Source: Tomocerus qinae (lineage: Eukaryota; Arthropoda; Collembola; Entomobryomorpha; Tomoceridae). Taken from it: 64,000 nt of DNA. The position numbers and the translations under genes are program-made. The notes under the pieces are model-generated. The model saw only the letters and a list, made by a program, of their open reading frames with translations. It was not told the origin of the DNA and did no database searches. Positions 2 through 61,457 of this stretch are shown here, piece by piece (position 1 is the first letter of the stretch; the number at the start of each line of letters is the position of its first letter). Location of the stretch: assembly GCA_020055645.1 (NCBI GenBank), contig CM034546.1:91512001-91576000 (forward strand). The letters are read 5' to 3'.

Positions 2-655
2 GTTGGAGATAAATGTGATCATTCGTCTTGGGGGTCGCTATACAAGCCTTACTTAGATGCCCGAGATACTGCTCATTCAATGGAAGGATTTGATTCCGTA
101 GAATCCGAAATAGCGGAAGAGAAATCTACTGACTTATTTAGAAAGCTGATGAATGCGATGGACGCTAATCCTGATCTTTATGGGGACGTTTGTTATACGG
201 CCGATCATGTACTATTTTGCGATGAGAATAGCAAATGTGCTTGTAATAAGCCCTATGTTCCAGATCCCAAAACTAGGTTATGCCGAACTGCCACCGGAGA
301 TACTTGCTTTATGAGATGCATTCATTTACAGGAAGATCAATGTCTGTCCAGTGATCATTGCTTTACATATGACGTGTACAAAGGTGAAGCGATCTGTTAT
401 CCCAAAGGCGTTTTCCCTCCAAGGAAAAACGTTGGGCGCAGAGCAAATCCTACAAGTTCTGCAAATCGCTTAAACATTGGCCAGCCTCTAAAATTCTACA
501 TTTTCTGTTTAGAAGCTATTACTATAATTACAATTTTCTTTTTATTGTGTTGTCAACTGTCCTGTTACCTTTGTCGGAGGTATTGGGGGATCCCCCGCCG
601 CCCACAGAGATTGCCAGTGCATACTTCTTATCGACAAAATGTAGATTTTGCATAA
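2..655 (+). CDS. C-terminal exon of a cysteine-rich single-pass membrane protein (5' truncated by window edge)
   Basis: The frame is open from base 2 to the TAA at 653-655 (217 codons), with an in-frame ATG at 80. With no stop upstream, this is probably the last exon of a gene entering from the left, not a gene starting at 80. Counting from that ATG, residues 32-108 form a cysteine-rich ectodomain (VCYTADHVLFC, KCAC, RLC, DTCFMRC and further Cys), reminiscent of EGF/EB-type modules. A linker rich in Pro, Arg and Ser follows, then a hydrophobic helix at about 140-166 (FYIFCLEAITIITIFFLLCC), then a short tail with CRRYWG and RRPQR. The inferred topology is type I, cysteine-rich side outside and basic tail inside. 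The family and function are not recognised. No clear AATAAA lies just downstream, so the 3' end is undefined. Confidence 0.72.
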   Translation, partial: VGDKCDHSSWGSLYKPYLDARDTAHSMEGFDSVESEIAEEKSTDLFRKLMNAMDANPDLYGDVCYTADHVLFCDENSKCACNKPYVPDPKTRLCRTATGDTCFMRCIHLQEDQCLSSDHCFTYDVYKGEAICYPKGVFPPRKNVGRRANPTSSANRLNIGQPLKFYIFCLEAITIITIFFLLCCQLSCYLCRRYWGIPRRPQRLPVHTSYRQNVDFA

Positions 656-15306: not shown

Positions 15307-15310
15307 AGTT
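15307..15310. repeat. Target-site duplication, left copy (AGTT)
   Basis: The 4 bp AGTT directly abuts the left LTR and recurs directly after the right LTR at 23016-23019. The preceding base is A on the left, and the last LTR base on the right is also A, so the duplication could be read as 5 bp AAGTT. Four or five bases is the usual size for Ty3/gypsy-type integration. Confidence 0.75.
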
Positions 15311-15733
15311 TATGAGGAGTCTGGGTCACCAGATAGCTGATTAGACTGAATAGTAGCACATTCTACCCTTTATCTACCCGTGATTCCTACTCAGTTCACC
15401 TTTAATGCCAGGATTATGATCGGATGCGAAGTAAATGACGGCACGACAGAACCAGAAGAATGTAGACACAGGCAAATGTATAAGTTTATTGTAACAGAAA
15501 TATGTCTTGACTGGGATTACTCTAAGTTCCTATCTAATAGTTGACTGGACTGACCTCCAGCCCGACTTGTCCCACGCACGGTACTCGACCAACTGGCGAT
15601 GCCACCGTCCGACACTCGCTTTGGAATGATAGATTCCAAGTGTAACCTTTGTGGGTGGTGGGAGGTGAATTAGAATACTACCGACGGGATGTAAATGAAG
15701 GTGTTAGTGTGGCTGGTGAGGCTGCTCCTCACA
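15311..15733 (-). repeat. 3' LTR (left copy)
   Basis: 423 bp, reading base for base like the copy at 22593-23015. In element orientation it begins TGTGAGGAG and ends CTCCTCATA, so the ends form a short inverted repeat around GAGGAG/CTCCTC. On the minus strand it contains AATAAA (plus-strand TTTATT at 15485-15490), a plausible polyadenylation signal. The 3' end is TA instead of the usual CA. Confidence 0.93.
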
Positions 15734-15757
15734 TACTCCCCCCGACAAAGCCCCCCC
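15734..15757 (-). other. Polypurine tract
   Basis: On the minus strand the sequence next to the 3' LTR is purine-rich: GGGGGGAGTA directly abuts the LTR, with a further run of seven G at 15751-15757. This is where the plus-strand primer of reverse transcription is expected. Confidence 0.75.
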
Positions 15758-16274
15758 TAACGACTGTGGTGGACGTAGGAAAGAATGATAGGGTTAAAAT
15801 AGATCATAGTAATTTTCCTAAGTCCCCCTTACATAATTCATACAAAAATCCAAATCTATCATTCATAATTACATTATAAAAATCATATTGCATAATAATT
15901 CACGAATGTTGATGTGATGTATAAATGTTATATGTGCATGTTGTGTAATTGTTGAAAATGATATTCATAATTGACATAATACATGAATTAATTGTAATAT
16001 AATGTTGCCTTTAACCTTGATATGTGTCCTTATATTATGCTATACAAATGTCCTTAATTATTTTAACCAAATAGTGTAAATTAAGTTTAGTGTGTTAGTA
16101 TATGTTTTAAACTGAAATGCATGCTAATGTAACATTGAATTAACTGTAAATTAAATCTATATATACAAATTTTTGGGTAAGAGAGTTAAATGCCTAATTA
16201 GTTGTGGTGGACTCGCAGATATAAAAGAATTTCTAAAAGGATGTTGTTTCGACGTAGTCCGTACTTTTGAAGAT
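15758..16274 (-). other. AT-rich 3' non-coding part of the LTR element
   Basis: About 0.5 kb of AT-rich sequence between the polypurine tract and the first minisatellite array. No open frame with recognisable content was found on either strand. It is presumed to be 3' untranslated sequence of the element RNA. Confidence 0.5.
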
Positions 16275-16620
16275 CTCGTTCGAATGACATCAATGTAGAA
16301 TTCCTCCTGATTAACTCGTTCGAATGACATCAATGTAGAATACCTCTGATTAACTCGTTCGAATGCCATCAATGTAGAATTTCTCCAGATTAACTCGTTG
16401 GAATGATACAATGTAGAATTCCTCCAGATTAACTCGTTCGAATGATACAATGTAGAATTCCTCCAGATTAACTCGTTCGAATGGCATCAGTGTAGTTGTC
16501 CTCCAGATTAACTCGTTGGAATGACATCAGTGTAGTTGTCCTCCAGGTTAACTCCTTCGAATGACAACAGTGTAGTTGTTCTCCAGGTTTAACTCCTTCG
16601 AATGACAACTATGTAAACTT
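16275..16620. repeat. Minisatellite array A, ~40-bp unit, about 9 copies
   Basis: Nine copies of a 39-41-bp unit start at about 16275, 16315, 16354, 16394, 16433, 16472, 16512, 16552 and 16593. Each begins CTCGTTCGAATGACATCA or a close variant and carries AATGTAGAATTCCTCCAGAT. Later copies drift (CTCCTTCGAATGACAACA, TAGTTGTCCTCCAGGT). The period is mostly not a multiple of three, so the repeated minus-strand peptide it yields is probably incidental. Confidence 0.9.
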
Positions 16621-17329
16621 TCCCTTTCGTGTTGTAGTAGTATTGCTGTCTTAGATGCAGCGATTCAAAGTTGTTTTCCCGGATTTAAGAGTTACGTAAT
16701 GGTAGATCTTATGTGAGATTAAGGCAGAATTAGTTCCGAAAGTCCATAGATTCTTGGCTAAGTGATCGAAAAAAAAGAAGAGTAAAGTTTTGTAGATTGA
16801 TAGTAATGAAATTTCGCTAACTCGCGTTTGCCAAATAGTCGTTGGTAAGTGGACGTTTTGCCAAGAGGTTTATTATATAGCAGGTTCTTCAGCGAAGTAG
16901 TTGATATTACTGTTGTTATACTGTTGATATTGTTGAGCAACTTATATCAGCTTTTGTAGTTTTTTGAGATTGTGATCACACAACTCTGCGCTATCTCGCG
17001 TATTTGTAGCTTAAACGGATTAATTATTTAAGTTTTCCTCCAAAGGATACTGTTTTTAGTTAGTGAAATGAAGTAGTTGTAAGATTTGATTAGTCTCGCG
17101 ATTTCCCGCAAAAATTGTAGTAACGTTAGCTGTCTTCCATAGCTCTTAATTTTCTTCGTACAGGAACCCTATGCCATCTTCCGATGCATTCGTAATCCCA
17201 CGAATATTCAGTAGTTGCTTTTATAGACACTAAAAACGTTAGTAATTAAGCATAGTGAACAAGTTAAACCTTTTAAAATGGTGTCATTATAATAGAGTTG
17301 GTAATCTGTACTAGAATAGGTCTAATGAA
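16621..17329. other. Spacer between minisatellite arrays A and B
   Basis: About 0.7 kb of AT-rich sequence inside the LTR element. No coding frame or clear repeat is recognised. Confidence 0.4.
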
Positions 17330-17975
17330 CCCTTAAGGTAGGTCTTATACAATCAATAGTAAAGTATGGTAACCACACATAATGCATAGTAAAGAAGGGT
17401 AACCACAATTTTGAACATAGTAGGGTAGAGTAATCACAATTCCATACATAATAAGTCAACGTCAACACATCCACGCATATATCTAAGTAGACTCGCCACA
17501 TTGTATGATCACAGGTAAGTAGCGTCAACGCATTTATAAGTACATCTAAATAGAGTCACCACACTGTATGCGCATAATACAATATGGTCAACACATAGAT
17601 ACATAGATCTAAATAAAGTCAACACATTCTATACCCATAGTAAAGCAGGGTCAACACCTAACTACGTATATCTAAATAGAGTCAACACAGACTATACACA
17701 TTTTAAAGTAGGGTCAACACACTGTTTACATGTATTAAAATAGCGTCAACACACTGACTACATAGAAAAGTAAAGTCAACGCGCCCATTACACATAGTAA
17801 AGTACCGTCAACTCACTATTACACTTAGTAAAGTAGGCTCAACTCACTACTACTCATATAGTAAAGTAGTGTCAACTCACTGTTACCATAGTAAAGTAGT
17901 GTCAACTCTCTAATACACATATAGTAACGTAGTGTGTACTTCCTAATATACATATAGTAAAGTAACTCATTTCCT
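17330..17975. repeat. Minisatellite array B, ~36-40-bp unit, about 16 degenerate copies
   Basis: Tandem copies of a unit built on CATAGTAAAGTAGGGTCAAC followed by ACACTATTACA. The right-hand copies are the most regular (17770-17975). The left-hand copies are more diverged, with GGTAACCACA in place of GGTCAACACA and interspersed ATCTAAATAGAGTCAACACA variants. Exact copy borders are approximate. The array is unrelated to array A. Confidence 0.85.
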
Positions 17976-18029
17976 GACTCGTGCTGTGCTTTAAACTGAT
18001 ATGAAATATGATGTAATCCATATTTCAAA

Positions 18030-18345
18030 ACTGTCGCAGCTTATAGCTTCAGTGCCTAAAGTTTCATCTTTGTTTAATGTTAGCGTTTTTAAAATACATG
18101 TTAACTATGCCTGTCGCAAAATATAGTTTAAGTACATACATTAAGAGTAACTGCTTTAAGTACACAAGTTTTTTTTATGGCAGTATATAGCTTAACTACA
18201 TAAATTGTAAGGTAACGGTTGTAAATACATGAGTGCAAAAGCCTATGGCAGTGTATAGTACACGTACATATGTAGTAGTAAGTAAGGTAATACTATTGCT
18301 AATACCCATAGCTGTGTATATATATAGTTGTATGCATGGCCCGAC
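18030..18345. repeat. Tandem array C, ~65-80-bp unit, about 4 degenerate copies
   Basis: Four imperfect units share a core of GTCGCA or GGCAGT followed by ATATAGCTTAA, AGTACATA and GTAAGGTAACTGC-like segments. They start near 18031, 18112, 18178 and 18246. The array is more diverged than A and B, so borders are approximate. It continues the run of tandem repeats in the 3' half of the LTR element. Confidence 0.65.
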
Positions 18346-18747
18346 CTATGTATACGAATATATTAATGCTTACGCTGGGGCTCCTTGCCAATTGACTAAG
18401 TTACATCAACGTGATATAGTTTTGACCTTCTGAAGCAATCCTTTGCTTCCTTAGTGGTTCTATGTGTTACTTCCGGTGGTCAATGAATAAGCCAGTAAAA
18501 TAAATGAGTCGTTCTTTAACGCTATCATGTGGTCCTGAAGGCGATAGTGATAAACCGTGATGTCTAAAATGTTTCAAAACATCCCAGCTTCAATCCAAAA
18601 ATAGTTCGGTGTGAATTAATTTCAAAAACAATTTGATAAATTTCTAAAAATGGCATCCAAAGTCCTCTTTATAATCTAATTTTAATATTTTCATTGCAGG
18701 AAAGATCCAGAAAATTGTTAAATATTTTCCCCCAATAAGTCGTAGCT
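18346..18747 (-). other. Segment between array C and the downstream open frame
   Basis: About 0.4 kb following the stop of the 268-codon frame in element orientation. No coding content or clear repeat was recognised. Confidence 0.4.
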
Positions 18748-19554
18748 TTAATTTAAAGAAATATTGTCAAAATAGCTCGTATTTATGCGTTTTATCCTCA
18801 AAATTCTTGGAATTTTCCAGCTTTTTTTTTCTATTTTGAAATAATAATTGGTTTTAAATCTAAGTAAGTCGAATTGGTAGGTTGAAGTACACCTCCATTC
18901 TTGAGCTGTTATTATACTAGCCTTGACAATCCGTTTGTCCTCAAAGAAAATTAATAAATAGATGAAAAGACAATCTCTAATTTTAACCTTCTGTTTCAAC
19001 TTAATCGTAACTAACTTTAATTTGCGCTCTCTGAAGCAAGTGAGAAACATAATTCGCTTAAACTTAAACTTCCTCAAAGCCCAATAAAACTGAATTTCCG
19101 TCCAAATGGCGTTTTGCTCACAAGTCCATGCAACATTACCTAGCTGATACTCAGCTGCAGAATAAATCTGTGTAGCGATGCTCGCTTTTAGTAATGCTAT
19201 ATTACTGACAATAATTGCTCCTCTAGCCAAGCCTTGCTCCCTTCGCACTGCCCTGCTGAACAAGATTAACAGAATCAAAACTCTTGACCTCAATAGACTT
19301 CGTCCCTTGATCGCAGCCCATTTTGACAATGTGAACCATGTCCTCGAACCATAATTTTCGCTTCCATGTCTGTTCCATTTCCAAGTAATTGCACACATAA
19401 TCTTAGGAATTTTCCCGGCAATTCTGAATTTTTGTAGTTGATTACTACCTGGCGCTGATTGGCTTAATTGGCACTGCTTCGCTTTCTTCTGTGTAATACA
19501 CACACTCTTCTTTATACGAAATAGCTCGCTTTCACGTAAATGATCCAATTTCAT
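18748..19554 (-). CDS. Second open frame of the LTR element, in frame with gag (function unknown)
   Basis: 268 codons, starting at an ATG 27 bases after the gag stop and in the same reading frame: gag ends at TAG (19582-19584), then nine sense codons, then this ATG. An open stretch this long in AT-rich DNA is unlikely by chance, so it was probably translated, either from its own start or as a readthrough extension of Gag. The product is strongly basic (KKAKQC, WKWNRHG, LRKFKFKR, KQKVKIRD) with two hydrophobic stretches, near residues 88-99 (SRVLILLILFSR) and 200-210 (CLFIYLLIFF). No CCHC zinc knuckle, YxDD, RNase H, integrase or envelope motif was found. It could be a diverged nucleocapsid-like tail or a domain unique to this element. 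Confidence 0.5.
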   Translation of the reverse strand: MKLDHLRESELFRIKKSVCITQKKAKQCQLSQSAPGSNQLQKFRIAGKIPKIMCAITWKWNRHGSENYGSRTWFTLSKWAAIKGRSLLRSRVLILLILFSRAVRREQGLARGAIIVSNIALLKASIATQIYSAAEYQLGNVAWTCEQNAIWTEIQFYWALRKFKFKRIMFLTCFRERKLKLVTIKLKQKVKIRDCLFIYLLIFFEDKRIVKASIITAQEWRCTSTYQFDLLRFKTNYYFKIEKKSWKIPRILRIKRINTSYFDNISLN

Positions 19555-19581
19555 TTTAATTGATTTGCAATCGTCATCTTC

Positions 19582-20493
19582 CTATGATCCCAATTCCTCA
19601 CCAAATGCTGGGCCGCGGCTCCCAACATCTGTGCTAATCGAACTATTTGTTGTCGCTTCAATTGATTTGTTGTTCTTACGATTACAAGTCGGAAAATTGA
19701 AATTTTTCAATTCGTCTCCAGCTGATCCAAAAAATTCCGGTGCTAAGGCGTCCCCCAGCATGCAATCACGCAAATCTGCTGTATCCATCCGAGTTGTTTC
19801 TCCTATGCTCGTATTTATTTTCATACGCTGTTGTTGACATAAATAGTTGATGTTTCTTCTTCTTTGACGACTATCATCCCGTAGCTGAAATTGGTAATAC
19901 TCGCCGAAGTTTTCCATTCCGACGTCTTCCTTTCCTTCTTCCCCTAAGCGAAGTTCTAGGTGACTCACACCTATTGCATCACTGCAACGCAACCAACGCG
20001 AATATTCCTCTTGATTCCTTTCTACCATTTTCGCGCAATCAATTAATGCATCTACTGTGTATTCAGTTAAACTACAAGTAAATATTCTAAGCCTCGGATG
20101 CAATGCCTCTCTACACTTTTTAACAGCAATTTCCTCACTATCTGCAGGAAAAAGTGATCTATTCCAATACATGAAATCATATATAAACTCTTCTACACTC
20201 TCTTCAAATCTTTGTTTCCTATGAACAAAATGTCTGTAAGCTTTATACTTCTCAGGATAAAAATTATGTCTTTCTGCGTACAGTAATTTAAACACGTCCC
20301 AAGTATAATTCTGCTTTATCGTATTTTTAAACCAATGATAATCATTGTCTCTTAAAACCGAAGGTAGGTAGTCAAACCATAAGTCTTTATCTATCCCAAT
20401 GGCTTTAAAATAAAACTCTAAGTCCTTCAAATACTCTACAGCATTATCCCTGACTTCAGGTATAGGTACCCTGCATCCACAAACAAAATCCAT
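19582..20493 (-). CDS. gag: gag: retrotransposon capsid protein
   Basis: 303 codons from an ATG at 20491-20493, with an in-frame stop six codons upstream. Residues about 18-165 read as a Ty3/gypsy-type capsid domain: YLKDLEFYFKAIGI (the F/Y-x-x-A-I helix), W39 and Y42-LP, W54-F, the TWDVFK helix at 64-69, RKQRFEESVEEF at 92-103 (the Q-x-x-x-ES-V signature of retrotransposon Gag), then a LHPRLRIF segment and VERNQEEY. The C-terminal 120 residues are acidic and polar with one basic patch (RQRRRN). The usual CCHC zinc knuckle is missing, so RNA packaging would need another basic region, perhaps the following frame. Gag would form the virus-like particle in the cytoplasm. It ends in a single TAG before a long in-frame extension. 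Confidence 0.85.
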   Translation of the reverse strand: MDFVCGCRVPIPEVRDNAVEYLKDLEFYFKAIGIDKDLWFDYLPSVLRDNDYHWFKNTIKQNYTWDVFKLLYAERHNFYPEKYKAYRHFVHRKQRFEESVEEFIYDFMYWNRSLFPADSEEIAVKKCREALHPRLRIFTCSLTEYTVDALIDCAKMVERNQEEYSRWLRCSDAIGVSHLELRLGEEGKEDVGMENFGEYYQFQLRDDSRQRRRNINYLCQQQRMKINTSIGETTRMDTADLRDCMLGDALAPEFFGSAGDELKNFNFPTCNRKNNKSIEATTNSSISTDVGSRGPAFGEELGS

Positions 20494-20644
20494 TTTCTCT
20501 GGTAGTAGTTAAATCGATGTCTAAGTTAAGAAATACTTAAAATTCAACTCATTTAAAATAGCTCTAATGTTAAATATTTACATTTACGCAGATCATGACT
20601 ATTCTTAAGCAAATTTGTGGTAGAAATTTAAAATAGTGATTAGA

Positions 20645-21070
20645 TTAATTCCCTATTTGACGACGTCTGAATCTGGTTATTGCGTCCCCAAACTCTGAAA
20701 TATCTGCTTGTTCGAAGTCTGTAAATATGATGTCTCTTCCGATAATTATAGGAATTTTACTGCAGTGTGCTATTCTAAAGTCATGAAATACTACAACATT
20801 ATGCGTCTTTAACCTTAATCTTACTGTCTGAGGTCTTGAATTTCCAGATGTGTCAATTTATATAGGATACGTTATAAGCAAATTAGGAAATAATTTTAAT
20901 GTTTCTATGTGTATTATTGAAATTTCTGCTTCTGAATCTGCTCGAGTAACTAAATTTATCGATGTTCTTGGTGTACTAGGATGGCTGACTTCTACTGTAG
21001 TGTATACGTACATAATTTTCTTAGAATTATTCAAAGGCGATTTCCAAATCCACTTATATTGTTCATAAAG
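20645..21070 (-). pseudogene. Degenerate retropepsin-like segment upstream of gag, with one internal stop
   Basis: A minus-strand frame runs from after a stop at 21071-21073 to a stop at 20645-20647, interrupted by TAA at 20858-20860. It shows both hallmarks of an aspartic protease of retroelement type, spaced by about 60 residues: INLVTRADSEAEIS (active-site region, 20921-20959), where D-S/T-G-A is expected, and PIIIGRDIIF (20723-20752), matching the terminal hydrophobic-hydrophobic-Gly-R-D motif. Gly is replaced by Glu in the active-site triplet, so activity is unlikely. The usual order is gag then protease; here the protease lies 5' of gag in a different frame, which suggests rearrangement. 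The protease identity rests on two motifs only. Confidence 0.6.
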
Positions 21071-21073
21071 TTA

Positions 21074-22572
21074 TCTTCACAAGAATTTAGTTATCCTTCA
21101 AAAGTTCCTTTGCCCTTCTGACGAGCAGTGTGATATCCCCACCCAGAATATTATTCCATTAGCCGGTGACTTTTCCCTTGTCCCCGCCGTTAAAATATGT
21201 TAAGTTCCCAAAATTAATTATTTTAAGACTGCTGCAGGATTTACTGAGTATGTCCTTTATCTGATAATTCAAATATGTTTGCATTTGCTGATTTAAAATG
21301 GTTACTATGTTGTAGACTACTGCTTCAGAATTCCCCGAGCCAGTCCCTCATAACTCATGCAATAATTATAATAAAACCTTCCCCGATGAGTTGTCGAGCC
21401 GTGGAGTCGTCCCTAACTGTGGCCAGTCCCTTAGTTTTAGTCTTTATCTTTTCAAATTAAAATATTTCTCCAAATGGTATACGTATACTGGTGGTGCTAC
21501 TATCTAATAATCTTTTAGTCTTCTATTCCCAGGAAAGAGATAGTAGGTAAAAATATTCAAACGTACCGATATCAGCATACTATTCGTGCGTCAACACTGT
21601 GTTGACCATATGTGAACACACACATAGTGCATCGTAAGCACACGTATTGCACTGTAAGGCGATGCTCACCTATTTAATTTGAACTTGAACAGTAAACGCA
21701 CTGTGTGGCTACGTGATGCTCACGTATAGCCCAAGTATCTCGCTGATGTGTCGATATGCTGTTCCGCTTGTATTCTAGCTGTGCAGAAGATCCCCTCTGG
21801 AAAACGGCTCCTGATTGGTCGGCCAGTAGATAAGCGGTCAAGTCTCTCCAAGCGTTTTTCTAGAACTCAAGTACAAAGGGAATTAGCATAAAATCCTCTG
21901 GAGAACCTGAATGCATAATTCGACCTCTTTGTCCTCTTGCTTCTGTACTTACACACGTAATGCTCACGTATGATATGCATGTACCATGCCCGTAACCTCA
22001 CGGAATATCTCCAAGCCAATAAAATATTTTTCAATAATTCCAATTCCAGATAATATTAGTTAATACTTCAAAATTTTGATGAAATCTCCAATGAAAATGA
22101 CGATAAAGAATAATAGGATAATATCAAGCGATTTAAAATTGACAATTTGGTAAGTTAATGTGCAAAATTTTTGATAGTTTAACAATTAATTAGTGTATAA
22201 CTTGCTCTCCGTTTTTATGTATAGTTCTACCAATAAATGTATTATATTGGATGCGAAAGAAAGAAATTTTTGGAACGATACCCATTTACGATTAGCAGGC
22301 TCCCTGTTGAATATGGTCCAGTTTCCAAGTCCGAAAAGTCCAAATTAGGGCACTGTAATTTTCTTGTTCACTTCCCGAAGTTTTCTAGATAGCCACCGAA
22401 TTTTTCTTCCACAAAAGCAGCAATATTATACTTAGGTTATGCTCACCTAGTAATTGTAATACCCACAATACTTAGTAGTCCTCTTCCTCTTCTTCTACGT
22501 CGTGTCTCGTTCCGCCCCAAGACCAAATCACAAGTCCGAAAATAACGCTGACACTCCGAAAACGGTGAAAAA
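21074..22572 (-). other. 5' leader of the LTR element with four ATGCTCAC(C/G)TA motifs
   Basis: About 1.5 kb between the primer site and the protease-like segment, with no substantial open frame. ATGCTCACCTA or ATGCTCACGTA occurs at about 21662, 21716, 21960 and 22439. On the element's sense strand this is TA(C/G)GTGAGCAT. The two TAGGTGAGC copies match a splice-donor consensus, and the two TACGTGAGC copies carry an ACGTG core. Which, if either, matters is unknown. A TCAACACTGTGTTGA palindrome lies near 21591-21605. Confidence 0.45.
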
Positions 22573-22590
22573 GAGTCGGGTTTCGCACCA
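22573..22590 (-). other. Primer-binding site, tRNA-Phe-like
   Basis: On the minus strand, two bases (AA) after the 5' LTR, the sequence is TGGTGCGAAACCCGACTC. It begins with the obligatory TGG and resembles the complement of the eukaryotic tRNA-Phe 3' end (TGGTGCCGAAACCCGGG) with one base missing and changes at the far end. The tRNA assignment comes from general knowledge of tRNA-Phe, not from a local tRNA gene. Confidence 0.7.
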
Positions 22591-22592
22591 TT

Positions 22593-23015
22593 TATGAGGA
22601 GTCTGGGTCACCAGATAGCTGATTAGACTGAATAGTAGCACATTCTACCCTTTATCTACCCGTGATTCCTACTCAGTTCACCTTTAATGCCAGGATTATG
22701 ATCGGATGCGAAGTAAATGACGGCACGACAGAACCAGAAGAATGTAGACACAGGCAAATGTATAAGTTTATTGTAACAGAAATATGTCTTGACTGGGATT
22801 ACTCTAAGTTCCTATCTAATAGTTGACTGGACTGACCTCCAGCCCGACTTGTCCCACGCACGGTACTCGACCAACTGGCGATGCCACCGTCCGACACTCG
22901 CTTTGGAATGATAGATTCCAAGTGTAACCTTTGTGGGTGGTGGGAGGTGAATTAGAATACTACCGACGGGATGTAAATGAAGGTGTTAGTGTGGCTGGTG
23001 AGGCTGCTCCTCACA
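22593..23015 (-). repeat. 5' LTR (right copy)
   Basis: 423 bp, no difference seen from the copy at 15311-15733. In element orientation this is the upstream LTR and should contain the promoter. No convincing TATA box was picked out. It is followed directly by the second AGTT target-site copy. Confidence 0.93.
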
Positions 23016-23019
23016 AGTT
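23016..23019. repeat. Target-site duplication, right copy (AGTT)
   Basis: Matches AGTT at 15307-15310 on the other side of the LTR element. It marks the end of the insertion. Confidence 0.75.
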
Positions 23020-54800: not shown

Positions 54801-57800
54801 TGGAAGAGGGACAGCAGATCCCATTTTCTTTCAATTGAAATAATGAAATAGAATGAGCTCGTAGGATTGAGATTGGCAAGAAAAGGAAAGAGGCGAAAAG
54901 CGATTAGTAATCATGACTTCAACATCAAATTCCTCTCGAGCAAAGAACATACAAGATTTAATACCCAAATCGAAAAACTTTTTTTGTCCTTCTGAGACTC
55001 CCTTGCCATTTCAGTGGGAGAGAAGAAGGATTTTTTTGAGAAAGGATTATATTTATCTACTTATGAAACACACGCTGTGCTCTTTGTTTTCCATCTCATT
55101 CTGCACTCTGTCGATAAAACACTTAAGTTCAAGAAAGCAAAGAAACGACTAATCTCTCTTCGCAGAGAGTCCATAGAATTTCTATATGTCAGCGAAGACT
55201 ATAGAAATATGAACATTACTTACTGGCATTACTGATTAATATTATTACTGTTGAGTAACATATCAAGCCTTACGATTTGACTATTGTCACCCTTTTAGAT
55301 TTTTCAAAGGAATGGTCCGACAACTAACCAATATTTGTTTAAAGGCTTAGGAACTGAGTTCAGACATATGCAATGCCTGCCCATTTCGAAAAACCAACTG
55401 AGAACAAAAAACTTTTAAATGAGTGATACTATTTATGATTTTTTCTTTAGTTTCTAGGAACGTGGTATGAAATAGAGAGATACTATGCTGATTGGACTGT
55501 GAATACAAAATGCAATAAGATTGACTTCACGTACAACCCTGATGGTCGGATAGCCATTCTAACAACTGCCCTTCATGAAAAGTAAGTTTTCCCTTTCACA
55601 ACAGTTAAAGCAAGACTTAGTAAGAACAAGGTAATTGATCTTGAGTCACAAGTGAGAATATTTTGCGCTACATATGTATTTATTAAAGTTTTTGTATTCT
55701 TTTGACTGAAAAGAAACGTATTTATAATTTAAGTTTTAACTCTATTTTTAAATGTTCCATTGACTTCACGTTGCAGTTGCAGCTTCACGTATTCAGTTGC
55801 AGTATTTTCATAGTCATTCCCGCTTTGTAGATAGAGATATGTAAGACAAGAGTAAAGGAAACATAGTCAGAGTAAAATCAGTTAGAAGCACGTAGCTATA
55901 CACTTAATTTGGAGCACGAACACCATTATGAAGAAATGCACTGAATAAAGCAGAGTTGCCGCTACAGAAGTTAAGGAAAGTCATCTCGTTAAGATAACGC
56001 GTTTCATTTATGAATTATATGAAGGCTGCTACACATAGCCGGTACAGCATTAATAGAGTGTTGATGATAGTGTCATCGTCATAATAATGGTAGAGTAAGT
56101 ATTTGTATTGTAAGAAAAAGATGAAAGAAAAAATTCTGGGAAATATTCATCAAGCAGTAATTTATCGGTAAGAAGAGGAACGGTGAGTGTATGACAGTAG
56201 AGACTCTATCTAATCGATATTCCCATAAAGATAAAATGCGGCGTTTTCTACGAGTTCTTTAATTCCTAGAGACAATATGAAGAAAGACAAAAACACTTGG
56301 TACTATTAGTAGATCCGCTTTGTTCTACTCTGTCTTGAACAATGGATGTATGCAGTTGGCTCCTTTGTTAGTGTATAAACAAGTGCAATAGCAATTTGTC
56401 ACATACACAGTTAACCACACACATTAAAAGTAGTAACCAGAGTCAGAGGCATAAAGAAACATCAACATATCCATTCTGCGGTGTACTACAGTATGCCATC
56501 ACTTACGATTGCGCTGCCTACAACTTTGTCAACAACAAGGAAGATGATTTACGGAAGCTACACACAAGCGAAATGCCGTAAGGCGAGAAAAAATGTGAAA
56601 CGAAAAGTAAAGCTAAGCAAAACGAAAAGAAACTAAAGAGTTTTTTCAGTTGCACACATGCAATAAAAATGACGAGACGGATTGATATGGTTTGATGGGA
56701 ATTGCTTCGTTTCTATTGCCGTGAAGGTGTTTATTGCATCTGGATATCCCAGAGTCCATACACATTCGTCTTGTTATTAAAGTCTTAATACCAGCAATGG
56801 GAGGAAATGTGCGTTAAAGTGTTAAGCGTGTTCATTTACACTAGAAGGGACAATAAACACGTCGCAGTGCTAGCTAACAGAGCGGCCTGACACAAATAGC
56901 AACAACAAAGTAAATCATAAATTGAACTCCGCATAGGTACTTACTGTTATTTTGTGAGAGATTTTGTTTTGACGGTTACTTTCTGTGACTTGTAGTGCTG
57001 CCATTAAGTAACTGTCTTAACTTCAGGCTCTTTTGTCTTGTCACGTTTTCTCTATTTCTTTTCTCTCGTTTTTTCCAACTTTTATCATCCTTGCTTTTGT
57101 ACTATTTATGAGCTCTCGTCCGAAGATGCAATTATACAGCAGCCATACATTACACTATTCACAAACATATAAATATGCTGATGGGTTTCAAATTAAGCGT
57201 GTGTTCTTTTAACACATTCACTCTTACTCCTATTTACTTGCACTGAAGGAGACTTTTAAATAGTGGTTGTCAACTCTTCTTTAATCCACAATGTTAGATA
57301 CAAGTTCTGCCCATGACGGATGTGAAAATATGTGAAATAACGGGAGTGCCCCTAATTGGCATATACCTTTTTGGCATAAATTTTTTTTATCAAAAACCCT
57401 TTTTGGCATACTTTATTGGCATAATTTTATTGAACAATCAAATAATTAGTCATAATACTCAGTCAAAAAATGTGTGAAGTGTCGGTATTTATACATACAT
57501 ACTACATCTTTAGTTACCTCGTCGTAAATGTCCCCAGCGCACTTCATAGGATTTTCTAAGGCAACCCGTTTGGCTTCTCCAAAACACAGTTTTTCTGACA
57601 CTTTGACACTATCTGGGACATGAGATATGTGACGACCATTTGCCCACCCTTTCTTGCACTCCCTATATATCCCATCTTTTTCCACCACTGAAGCACCACA
57701 TATATCTCTTTCAGTACACACCCAGTAGTTGGAGCCCTTATAAGTATAACGCTTTGTGTATACGTAACCATTCCTTGCTAACTGTTTCGTAATTTTATTT

Positions 57801-60800
57801 TTAATTTGTGAAAAGAAAGGACGTGCATAGTCGGCCATTTTTGGAATGAAACGAAGAACTAAAGAGAAGAAGAAAAGAGAAGTCACTAGAACTTCGGAGA
57901 ACCATTCTTATCAGCCATCAACATGTTATGCATATTGGAAATGTTAATTCATTCTTAGCATAGCATAGCATGTTAATTCATCCTAACTTACTGTCTGTGG
58001 ATGTATACATATCGCAGGACCTCGTATCCTCCTATAGTTTATGCCAATTAGTGAAACATATTTTTATGCCAATAAGGAGAAAAAAATTATGCCAAAAAGT
58101 GGGTTTTTATGCCAAGCAGTGATTATTTTTTTTATGCCAAAAAGCGTATGCCAATTAGGGGTAGGAGGAGACAATTTTTCATGTGTAAACGAGAGTGTCA
58201 GGTTTTCTTTGTACTCTGCGCCTATCATTTGATTTCCTGATCAAATTAATATTGCATTGCAATTAGTACAACCACCTAGCTGTTACGTTACCCAGTTGTT
58301 GAAACTGAGTGCGTAAAAATATTGTTATCCATTGTCATTATACTTAACCTCGGTTTGTTAATATTCATATTGCGGATTACAAACAAAAATGCAGTTCACG
58401 TTCTCACATTGATTTACTTTGGCTACCTTTTACATCTCGTTTAGTTTTAATTAGTGCCACTAGTACTTGCGTAGTTCTTATGTACCTGTTGTACGTGAAA
58501 TGCTTCACAAAATATTTCTTGGCAGTTGAAAGTTGAAACACAATAATAATTGCAGTTCAGGAAATCCCAAACCAAGTTGTTCATTCCATGTAAATGAAAA
58601 AATTATGTGTTTGTGTTAAGGTCTGTAAAAAACCGGAAACTCCATATCAAAAGGTTTTTTGTCTCATGCAAAATATTATTGTAGCATGTTGTGTTTTAAG
58701 GTGAACTACAAATAGGAAACCAATTTGATACAATGAACTTCGTGTCTGTAAATGGCAAATTAAAACACTAAGCATGTTTACTCTATATGCCTTCATGTTA
58801 GTTTCATTGTTAGTCCATCTACTATATACAATTCCAGTATCCAGTAGCTTCGAATTACAATACAATACATACATAGTGCGTATTAATGTAATTAGCATTG
58901 GATCTGCCTGAGTTATCACAACAGAGAACACAACAGTTGTGCACTTTATAAAGGCCGATTCACCTTGATAAAGTATTTCTACTATCATGATGAACCTATT
59001 AATGTTTACAAATTAAAATAAGGTAGAAGCAACGGGAATGCATTTAGCATACTGATTGCGAGCATCAGCTTATTAAATAATGTAATGTAATATACTTGTA
59101 GTTAGGAAAATAAATGATGTAACGCTATAAGTTACATGACTACTAGTAACTAGTAAAGTCACGCTTGTAAGTAATGCATGCAGTGAAATGCATGCGAAGG
59201 GATCACTTACTGTGTAAATCATGTAAGAACAGCTCTGTTATGTTTCTGATTTATTGCTGAAGAAGGTATCAGGCTTGAATTTTTTGCCCATATTATTATA
59301 TCGATATGTAACTGAGCTGTATAAAAATTGAAACTTGAATAGTAGTGGTCATTATGTAAGTCTTTGTTTTATTATTCGTTTTCCAATGCATAATTTAGTG
59401 AGGACCTTCGGTACAATTATACGAGATAAACTTTCGTATATCATATGTGGCATATAATAATTCAGTAATCTCTATAAGAATCGTTATTAAATCATGGTGA
59501 AGTAAAAACATTAAGTAAGCACAAAGATTCCAATGTTATGAAATATTATTGTTCGAGACTGACAATGAGTGAATGTGCACTTCCTATTTTATTGGAGGTA
59601 TTGTTTTATTTCTCGAGCTAAGTGAATTGAAAGGAAACCCGTTAATACGCACGGAAATATTTGTCTTTAGTCAATAGCCTTTGGTCGAAGATCTGGTTTT
59701 GTCTAAACAGTCTGTCGTTGTTGTGTTTTCTGGTGGAGACAGTGTGTACCATTATATATGTCTTTATGGTAATTGCATTGCTTAATTAAAAGTTAGAGAT
59801 TCCATTAGGTATGTTTATGTACGTTATGTTAGTGTCTATGTCAAAGTAGAAGAATATTTCTAGTCCATTAGGAACACTCTTTGCAGTTGTGTTGAGAGAG
59901 TTGATGATGGTGCTGAGTCGAATTAAAAGTTGAATGTTTAGATATTTGATAGATACCTAGAGAGCATATTATGGTAGAGACATGGGAGAGTGGACTTGCC
60001 TGACTCACACTCTCCCTGCCTAAGTTGTTAATACCAGTAGCTGGTTTTGTTTTGATTAGTTTCTATTAGCAAAGTTGAAATAAAAGATGCTGCTTACGTT
60101 GCTCTGTTGTTACCTTGAAAGGTGAAGGTGAATAGTTCACAATAAGGAAATGCACGGAATGTTCTAAGCTGTAAAGCTAGTCGTGAAGAGAAACAAGCCT
60201 ACAACTGAGTAACAATACAAGCAAGGCAGACAACTTAGGAAAGCTGCGAGACAGGCAAGATGCTAGACTGGCAATAAATACTAGTTGACTATTCTTAAGA
60301 ATATAGGTACTGCCAATATTCAATGATCTCCTATTGAAACACTACAAGATTTGTGTTCTGCGACAATCTATGGAGATGTATTGTAGTAAATAATGAGGGT
60401 ATCCATTATATTTATTACTTAAGTCACATACTTAAGTAGAGAGTCACTACTTTTCTAATGTGCTTTCCTTTGTTTTGCTGCGTGCAAATAATTGTGTTTT
60501 ATGATCGCGAGAAAGATATACATGCACGTCGATTTGGTCGATAATAAATAGAGTGAGCCAATTAACTATTTTACTACAAGTGTTACACATTTTTTTTCTT
60601 TTTCAAGGAGCGGAATGCCTAAGGTTGCTTACGGCTTGGCTAACTTTGAGTACGGAGAATCTGCAAGAATGACCATAAGCATTACACCAACACCAGGGGC
60701 TCCGACTCCAAAGGAATTCGGATACTGGGTCCTCGATACAGATTACGAATCATATGCCGTTGTTTACTCGTGCGATGACTTCTGTCGAGGTCGTCAACAC

Positions 60801-61457
60801 TCAGGTAAGGAATCAATGAGCAAAAAGTGGAAAATACAAATACCTGTATTTAATAGCATGATTTTAATTATGTGAATTCAATAATCTTTCAGAATCCATT
60901 TGGGTCTTGGGACGCACTGCCATCATTCCCCAGCAAGTTATCAACCGAATTTACGATAAAATAAAAATCTTGGGTTTGGATCCTAAGCGTCTCATGAAAG
61001 TAAATCTTTGGACATAATTTAGGAATAATTCATACTAGGCCCCCAGTACTATTGCTGAATTTCAAAATGATTAGCCATATTAACATTGTTTAGTTTCGAA
61101 ATAAGCTAATGTTTACTTATATCGGACTTCTTTGTTTTATGAAATATGCATTGTATACACGCACATGTACATTGTAACAAAAAGCCTCATTTCCCATGGC
61201 ATAGATAGATAATTGCGACATAGGAATAAATAATTTTATTTATAGTGATGATAGTTAATAAAGGATTACATTACATGTTGATTAATGTATGGTTATTGTT
61301 TTCATAGGTTGATCAACACAAGTGCGTCAACGTAGCAGTATCTGTCCGTAGCGAGAATTCTGGATTCACGAGTAATTCTTTCGATCGCAATTCAGCCCGC
61401 AAATTTTTGGCATCCTTAACTAACATTTTTGGACGGAAAAAATACAATTATTATTAG
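51732..61457 (+). CDS. Apolipoprotein-D-like secreted lipocalin (5 coding exons, 234 aa)
   Basis: Coding join: 51732-51851, 55451-55581, 60608-60804, 60893-60999, 61308-61457 (705 nt including the stop, phases consistent). Residues 1-19 form a signal peptide (MIVCMRLAAFLSIISFSTG). The lipocalin GxW motif is GTWYEIERYY at 43-52, the second conserved region is TDYESYAVVYSC at 128-139, and the third is WVLGRT at 153-158. Cysteines 27, 61, 139 and 191 match the ApoD pattern, so bonds 27-139 and 61-191 are expected; C4 (signal peptide) and C143 are extra. N35 (NFS) is a possible glycosylation site. ApoD-like lipocalins bind small hydrophobic ligands in an eight-stranded barrel outside the cell; the ligand here is unknown. 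The 43-residue tail after C191 is longer than in typical ApoD. Introns are ~3.6 kb, ~5.0 kb, 88 bp and 308 bp. Confidence 0.93.
55451..55581 (+). CDS. Lipocalin coding exon 2
   Basis: Acceptor TTTTTTCTTTAG, donor GAAAA|GTAAGT. Encodes the GTWYEIERYY signature and the second conserved Cys (NTKCNKIDFTY). Ends in phase 2. Confidence 0.93.
57349..58161 (-). mobile_element. TIR element carrying a FLYWCH fragment, with TTTTTGGCATAA subterminal repeats (MULE-like)
   Basis: Perfect 15-bp terminal inverted repeats, CCCCTAATTGGCATA (57349-57363) and TATGCCAATTAGGGG (58147-58161), extend imperfectly to about 30 bp. Within them the word TTTTTGGCATAA or a close variant recurs about ten times, inverted between the two ends (about four on the left, six on the right). 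The only coding content is a FLYWCH domain without the MULE transposase that normally follows. A clean 8-9-bp target duplication expected of a MULE was not seen; only GGAG can be matched, so the family rests mainly on the FLYWCH domain. It lies antisense in lipocalin intron 2. Confidence 0.75.
57446..57838 (-). CDS. FLYWCH zinc-finger protein fragment of a MULE-type transposon
   Basis: 130 codons from an ATG (MADYARPFF) at 57836-57838; the same frame continues 16 codons upstream without another ATG. Residues 24-75 read as a FLYWCH finger: GYVYTKRYTYKGSNYWVC (aromatics and W39-x-C41), C47, then H70 and H73. Spacing is C-x5-C-x22-H-x2-H, so both the C-C and H-H gaps differ by a residue from the usual C-x6-12-C and H-x-H. 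The segment after it (EAKRVALENPMKCAGDIYDEV) resembles the linker that precedes the catalytic domain in FLYWCH-MULE transposases. The frame then ends within about 20 residues, so the catalytic domain is missing. Likely DNA binding only, if expressed; it could also be a dead remnant. Confidence 0.65.
   Translation of the reverse strand: MADYARPFFSQIKNKITKQLARNGYVYTKRYTYKGSNYWVCTERDICGASVVEKDGIYRECKKGWANGRHISHVPDSVKVSEKLCFGEAKRVALENPMKCAGDIYDEVTKDVVCMYKYRHFTHFLTEYYD
60608..60804 (+). CDS. Lipocalin coding exon 3
   Basis: Encodes MPKVAYGLANFEYG through TDYESYAVVYSC (third conserved Cys) and RGRQHS. Acceptor CTTTTTCAAG, donor TCAG|GTAAGG. A second AG three bases downstream (60609-60610) would also keep frame, giving K84-S85 or N84 at the junction. 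Confidence 0.93.
60893..60999 (+). CDS. Lipocalin coding exon 4
   Basis: Encodes ESIWVLGRTAIIPQQ and the C-terminal helix (VINRIYDKIKILGLD). Acceptor AATCTTTCAG. The donor AAA|GTAAAT is weaker than the others. Without splicing the frame reads VNLWT and stops at 61015-61017. Confidence 0.88.
61225..61230 (+). terminator. Intronic AATAAA: candidate alternative polyadenylation signal
   Basis: Lies in the 308-bp last intron, about 210 bp after the stop reached by retaining the intron. It would allow a shorter mRNA ending VNLWT and lacking C191. Presence of the hexamer is direct; use is inferred. Confidence 0.3.
61308..61457 (+). CDS. Lipocalin coding exon 5 (terminal)
   Basis: Acceptor GTTTTCATAG. 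Encodes VDQHKC with the fourth conserved Cys, then a 43-residue Ser/Asn/Lys-rich tail ending GRKKYNYY, TAG at 61455-61457. Confidence 0.9.
   Translation, partial: VDQHKCVNVAVSVRSENSGFTSNSFDRNSARKFLASLTNIFGRKKYNYY

What the first reader, a model, noticed from the sequence alone, without database searches (positions are those of the whole stretch)
15311..23015. Recently transposed LTR element that carries gag but no pol
The two 423-bp LTRs read identical and both flanks carry AGTT, so the insertion is young. Yet the 6.86-kb interior shows no reverse transcriptase or integrase motif, and half of it is tandem repeats. Such an element must be copied by a partner. Gag-only non-autonomous elements (TR-GAG) are described in plants; an animal example with its own rearranged interior would be unusual.
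Basis: partly seen in the sequence, partly recalled or inferred. Interest (0 to 1): 0.8.

Follow-up and report, generated by a model that had tools for sequence, protein, structure and literature searches.

The report
Young gag-bearing, pol-less LTR retrotransposon
A recently inserted mobile element, probably in an animal genome, that carries a capsid-like (gag) gene but none of the enzymes needed to copy itself, so a partner element probably copied it; similar pol-less elements are already described in mosquitoes and plants.

Summary
Two 423-bp LTRs (15311-15733, 22593-23015) are identical and flanked by AGTT. The element reads on the minus strand, with a primer-binding-like site beside the 5' LTR and a G-rich polypurine tract beside the 3' LTR. 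A 303-aa gag-like ORF shows weak but specific similarity to Arc capsid domains (best E=0.0024). After one TAG the same frame runs on for 277 basic codons. No interior ORF is long enough for pol, and no Pfam RT, RNase H, integrase or protease model matched any of 148 translated pieces. 'Half tandem repeats' is not borne out: 13-14% detected. New here: a degraded protease-like stretch upstream of gag, the reverse of the usual order (seen by eye and by a post hoc pattern only). Most likely this is a gag-carrying non-autonomous Ty3-type element copied in trans. It is not the first in an animal: a cited Culex paper's title reports CM-gag with 'only a gag gene', and 38 Culex families of coding-less LTR elements with tandem repeats are described. 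Copy number, partner and host are untested: the own-genome search was busy in 10 of 10 attempts.

The parts
22593..23015 (-). 5' LTR (element sense), 423 bp, starts TGTGAGGAG, ends CTCCTCATA
   Evidence: identical to the other LTR over 423 of 423
15311..15733 (-). 3' LTR (element sense), 423 bp
23016..23019 (.). target-site duplication, AGTT on the + strand
   Evidence: chance 0.0055 per boundary choice
15307..15310 (.). target-site duplication, AGTT on the + strand
22573..22590 (-). putative primer-binding site TGGTGCGAAACCCGACTC, two bases after the 5' LTR; resembles the tRNA-Phe 3' end with a one-base gap (tRNA recalled, not tested)
   Evidence: sequence
15734..15757 (-). G-rich polypurine tract directly before the 3' LTR
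   Evidence: sequence
22767..22772 (-). AATAAA, possible polyadenylation signal inside the LTR (by the 7282-nt spacing its copy in the 3' LTR is 15485-15490)
20648..21070 (-). two adjacent in-frame open pieces with one stop between (20858-20860), retropepsin-like by eye and by a post hoc pattern (20729-20938), Gly of the Asp-Ser/Thr-Gly motif replaced by Glu; lies upstream of gag
   Evidence: no Pfam and no PDB retropepsin hit
19582..20493 (-). gag-like ORF, 303 aa from its first Met, TAG stop at 19582-19584; Arc-like capsid region in about the first 165 aa; no CCHC knuckle by the two spacings tried
18748..19581 (-). 277-codon basic open frame, same frame as gag after the single TAG; K+R 55, D+E 20
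17426..17964 (.). degenerate tandem repeats, periods of about 32, 63 and 95
16275..16615 (.). tandem array, 40-bp unit, 8.6 copies, 89% matches

Best explanation
This is a young insertion of a non-autonomous LTR retrotransposon, probably of Ty3/gypsy type. It keeps what is needed in cis (LTRs, primer-binding-like site, polypurine tract) and a gag-like ORF but no pol. Shown: identical LTRs, the short duplication, an ORF with Arc-capsid similarity, and no ORF that could be pol. Inferred: its RNA was packaged in particles, reverse transcribed and integrated with the RT and integrase of an autonomous partner. Its own gag may have supplied capsid protein; the open 303-codon frame is compatible with that, but whether it is translated or functional is not shown.
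For: LTRs identical over 423 nt with AGTT on both sides. PBS-like site and PPT beside the LTRs, in the orientation of gag. Gag-like ORF of 303 aa; of 8 distinct PDB sequences at E<=1, 6 are Arc proteins, best 0.0024. No RT, RNase H, integrase or protease family in 148 pieces and no interior ORF over 308 aa. The 308- and 277-aa ORFs exceed every one of 500 Markov-1 random interiors. The RLG_Quinta/RLG_Cereba pair in wheat is a precedent for the proposed arrangement (PMC11302176, passages).
Against: The gag similarity is weak, Pfam gives nothing for it, and the AlphaFold model, though helical, is unusable (pLDDT 34.6). No homologue at the thresholds used was found in the protein collection (E<=0.01), viral contigs or prokaryote genomes. 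No partner and no second copy were seen in the window, and the own-genome search did not complete. The primer site is not a clean match to a tRNA that I can recall. The LTR has no TATAA or TATAT.
Confidence: 0.68

Rival explanations
1. A single defective derivative: an autonomous element lost and rearranged its interior, and one such RNA was copied once in trans. Gag and the 277-codon frame are relics that are not maintained.
For: The protease-like stretch has a stop and a changed motif, gag is followed by a TAG in an otherwise open frame, and the order protease-gag is unusual.
Against: Two long frames of 308 and 277 codons remain open, which relics of any age would tend to lose (inference).
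Confidence: 0.22
2. The insertion is older, or the interior is a misassembly; identical LTRs come from gene conversion or from collapse during assembly.
For: Nothing direct; reads were not available.
Against: PBS-like site, PPT, gag strand and AGTT all agree with one intact insertion.
Confidence: 0.05
3. A pol is present but too diverged or broken for Pfam and my 26-aa piece limit.
For: No positive control for the piece scan was run; very short or very divergent pieces would be missed.
Against: An intact pol needs an ORF of about 1,000 codons (general knowledge); the longest here is 308. A broken one could not serve the element in cis.
Confidence: 0.05

Closest known systems
TR-GAG (plants)
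   Same: LTR element with only a gag domain, or gag and aspartic protease, and no other pol domain (rule as used in PMC6022998, passages seen)
   Different: Probably an animal host; Arc-like gag; tandem arrays; protease-like stretch upstream of gag
RLG_Quinta of wheat, partner of RLG_Cereba
   Same: Encodes only gag and a second domain of unknown function, lacks RT and integrase, proposed to be cross-mobilised (PMC11302176, passages seen)
   Different: Partner proposed there, none seen here; here the second frame follows gag after a TAG
CM-gag of Culex pipiens
   Same: Reported as a reiterated transposable-like element that contains only a gag gene (title only, in the reference list of PMC3286476)
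   Different: Paper and sequence not seen; no comparison made
cqUNK non-autonomous LTR families of Culex quinquefasciatus
   Same: LTRs over 98% identical, PBS, PPT, target duplication (not determined for several in the table), internal tandem repeats, no known master copy (PMC3286476 section 14 read)
   Different: Those lack coding sequence; this one has a gag-like ORF
LARD (large retrotransposon derivative)
   Same: Large LTR derivative without pol; LARD is listed in the honey bee repeat table (PMC4028053, passages seen)
   Different: By the rule in PMC6022998 a LARD carries no domain at all; this element has a gag-like ORF

Membership tests
LTR retrotransposon | Two direct LTRs | tested here: met
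   423 of 423 identical
LTR retrotransposon | Target-site duplication | tested here: met
   AGTT at both flanks; 4 nt only, chance about 1.6% over three boundaries (and my arithmetic)
LTR retrotransposon | PBS complementary to a tRNA | tested here: inconclusive
   Site starts TGG two bases after the LTR; tRNA-Phe with a gap, from recall only; no tRNA gene found in the window
LTR retrotransposon | Polypurine tract before the 3' LTR | tested here: met
   G-rich tract 15734-15757, minus strand
Ty3/gypsy | Gag with Ty3-type capsid | tested here: inconclusive
   6 of 8 distinct PDB sequences at E<=1 are Arc, best 0.0024; Pfam none
Ty3/gypsy | RT-based placement and pol order RT-RNaseH-integrase | not testable with these tools
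   No pol found
TR-GAG-like non-autonomous element | Gag present, RT and integrase absent | tested here: met
   the gag assignment rests on weak similarity and the piece scan had no positive control
TR-GAG-like non-autonomous element | Several copies with the same structure | not tested
   Own-genome search unanswered in 10 of 10 attempts; no second copy in the rest of the window
Autonomous partner relation | Partner shares LTR ends, PBS and PPT | not tested
   Same unanswered calls

The most novel reading that the evidence does not exclude
An established animal family of semi-autonomous LTR elements with its own order (protease-like piece, gag, TAG, basic second frame) that contributes capsid protein and possibly a basic RNA-binding extension by stop-codon read-through, while a partner supplies RT and integrase.
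Probability: 0.2. Interest if true: 0.55.

Novelty: new member of a known kind. Interest (0 to 1): 0.33.

Why it matters
If copies with the same interior exist, it would be an animal counterpart of the wheat Quinta/Cereba pair and would let one test whether a pol-less element keeps gag because it is useful or only because it is young. As a single copy it is an ordinary defective element.

Tried and rejected
Not borne out: 'half tandem repeats' (12.7-14.1% detected; arrays with copies under about 70% alike would be missed). Led nowhere: homologues of gag in the protein collection (556 candidates, none at E<=0.01) and of the 277-aa frame (326 candidates, none at E<=0.1); for comparison a 217-aa ORF at 2-652 found one relative among 16 candidates (58% identity), so the collection holds at least that one. 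Gag in viral contigs (3 stretches matched a pattern, 0 confirmed) and in prokaryote genomes (31 matched, 0 confirmed); a 26-nt LTR pattern in viral contigs (0 matches). AlphaFold of gag without an alignment: pLDDT 34.6, so no fold search was made. Retropepsin test of the two upstream pieces in Pfam up to E=10 gave nothing; in PDB one piece had 0 hits at E<=5 and the other 2 hits at E=1.8, both proteasome subunits. What remains is the pattern hit, whose pattern I loosened after seeing the sequence (1 hit in the window, 1 in 200 random 64-kb sequences; the strict pattern with Gly found none in the window). By eye I also saw a protease-like string in another frame near 19293-19463; Pfam gave nothing and I do not claim it. 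NCBIfam scan of the 148 pieces at E<=0.01: none, of little weight since that library is for bacteria and archaea. Rfam at gathering scores over the window: none. Element against the rest of the window: no hit at E<=1e-3. Of 156 pieces of at least 25 aa, 148 of at least 26 aa were scanned; 8 of 25 aa and all shorter ones were not. No positive control of the piece scan was run.

Full report
Observation. The direct repeats at 15311-15733 and 22593-23015 are identical over 423 nt, and the identical block is 425 nt because both copies are preceded by TT. AGTT stands on both outer flanks. Four bases match by chance with P=0.0055 in this composition, or about 1.6% if three boundary choices are allowed. 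With 0 differences in 423 sites the upper 95% bound on LTR divergence is about 0.7% (3/423, my arithmetic). The insertion is therefore young unless gene conversion has made the LTRs alike.

Orientation and signals. Gag lies on the minus strand, so the 5' LTR is 22593-23015. Two bases inside it begins TGGTGCGAAACCCGACTC (22590-22573), a PBS-like site that resembles the 3' end of tRNA-Phe with one base missing; the tRNA is recalled and was not tested, and ARAGORN finds no tRNA gene in the window. Next to the 3' LTR is a G-rich polypurine tract (15757-15734). The LTR has AATAAA but neither TATAA nor TATAT. It has two TCAGT initiator-like words, at LTR positions 183 and 387, which is weak evidence for a TATA-less promoter.

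Coding content. Stop to stop, the interior holds two long frames, 308 aa and 277 aa. They lie in the same frame and are separated by one TAG at 19582-19584. In 500 Markov-1 random interiors the longest ORF has a median of 99 and a maximum of 159 aa, so neither is likely by chance. The first frame, 303 aa from its Met, is gag-like: phmmer of its first 180 residues against PDB sequences gives 8 distinct sequences at E<=1, of which 6 are Arc proteins (best 0.0024, 0.022, 0.082) and 2 are unrelated (CutA 0.31, NucC 0.51); the whole ORF gives Arc 0.0027, 0.043 and 0.17 and CutA 0.65. That Arc derives from a Ty3/gypsy capsid is stated in the opening of PMC6525542 (search listing). Pfam gives nothing for the ORF and the AlphaFold model made without an alignment is not usable, so the assignment is fair but not strong. 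It has no CCHC knuckle by the two spacings tried. The second frame is strongly basic, 55 K+R against 20 D+E, as an RNA-binding tail might be, but no relatives were found, and its codon-position composition looks less gene-like to me than that of gag.

Absence of pol. The 148 stop-to-stop pieces of 26 aa or more from both strands of 15734-22590 were scanned against Pfam: 19 families appear at E<=1, none of them RT, RNase H, integrase, retroviral protease or gag. Simple patterns for YxDD-type RT motifs, one spacing of the HHCC finger and two of the CCHC knuckle found nothing in the interior. More simply, no open frame in the interior is long enough for pol. I ran no positive control of the piece scan, so a decayed remnant is not excluded, but an intact pol is.

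A protease-like stretch upstream of gag. Two adjacent in-frame pieces (21070-20861 and 20857-20648, one stop between) carry the spacing of a retropepsin (motifs from general knowledge): Asp-Ser-x-Ala-Glu-Ile-Ser and, with Gly 66 residues after the Asp, Ile-Ile-Gly-Arg-Asp, with Glu in place of the first motif's Gly. The pattern, which I loosened after seeing the sequence, hits once in the window and once in 200 random 64-kb sequences; the strict pattern finds nothing in the window. Pfam up to E=10 and PDB give no retropepsin. If real, it lies 5' of gag, the reverse of the usual gag-protease order, and points to a rearranged interior.

Repeats. Tandem Repeats Finder arrays cover 870 nt, or 968 nt with BLAST-detected degenerate copies: 12.7% and 14.1% of the interior, not half. 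Very degenerate copies would be missed, so this is a lower bound. The two main arrays lie between the second frame and the 3' LTR.

Mechanism. The anatomy is that of an RNA that could be packaged, primed, reverse transcribed and integrated but that encodes neither RT nor integrase. Because the copy looks young, a partner most likely supplied these (inferred). The open gag-like frame allows, but does not show, that it supplies capsid protein. Wheat RLG_Quinta, which encodes GAG and an unknown domain and is proposed to be mobilised by RLG_Cereba (PMC11302176, passages), is the best parallel I found.

Known or new. TR-GAG is the plant class with gag, or gag and protease, and no other domain (PMC6022998, passages). 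In animals, PMC3286476 (passages, section 14 read) describes 38 Culex families of LTR elements with PBS, PPT, target duplication and tandem repeats but no coding sequence and no known master copy, and its reference list cites 'CM-gag ... contains only a gag gene' for Culex pipiens (title only). My paper searches covered open PMC text only. So the kind is known, also in insects; this appears to be a further member with its own details.

What could not be settled. The own-genome search was busy in 10 of 10 attempts, so copy number, partner and sharing of the interior are untested. The host was not identified; weak FLYWCH-like and lipocalin-like matches fit an animal but do not prove it.

Noticed in passing
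window 57449-57907, minus strand: ORF with a FLYWCH zinc-finger-like stretch (E=0.00085, below Pfam's cut-off), perhaps a host gene or transposon-derived
   Followed up: partly
window 60552-60872, plus strand: Exon-like ORF with a lipocalin-like stretch (E=0.00071, below Pfam's cut-off)
   Followed up: partly
window 2-652, plus strand: 217-aa ORF, cysteine-rich by eye, with one relative (58% identity, P0001) in JGI data; no Pfam domain at E<=10
   Followed up: partly
window 19582-19584: A single TAG parts gag from a 277-codon open frame in the same frame; read-through or a recent nonsense change are both possible
   Followed up: partly
window 21660-22450: Four scattered ATGCTCAC(G/C)TA words in the leader between the 5' LTR and the protease-like stretch, seen by eye
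   Followed up: no
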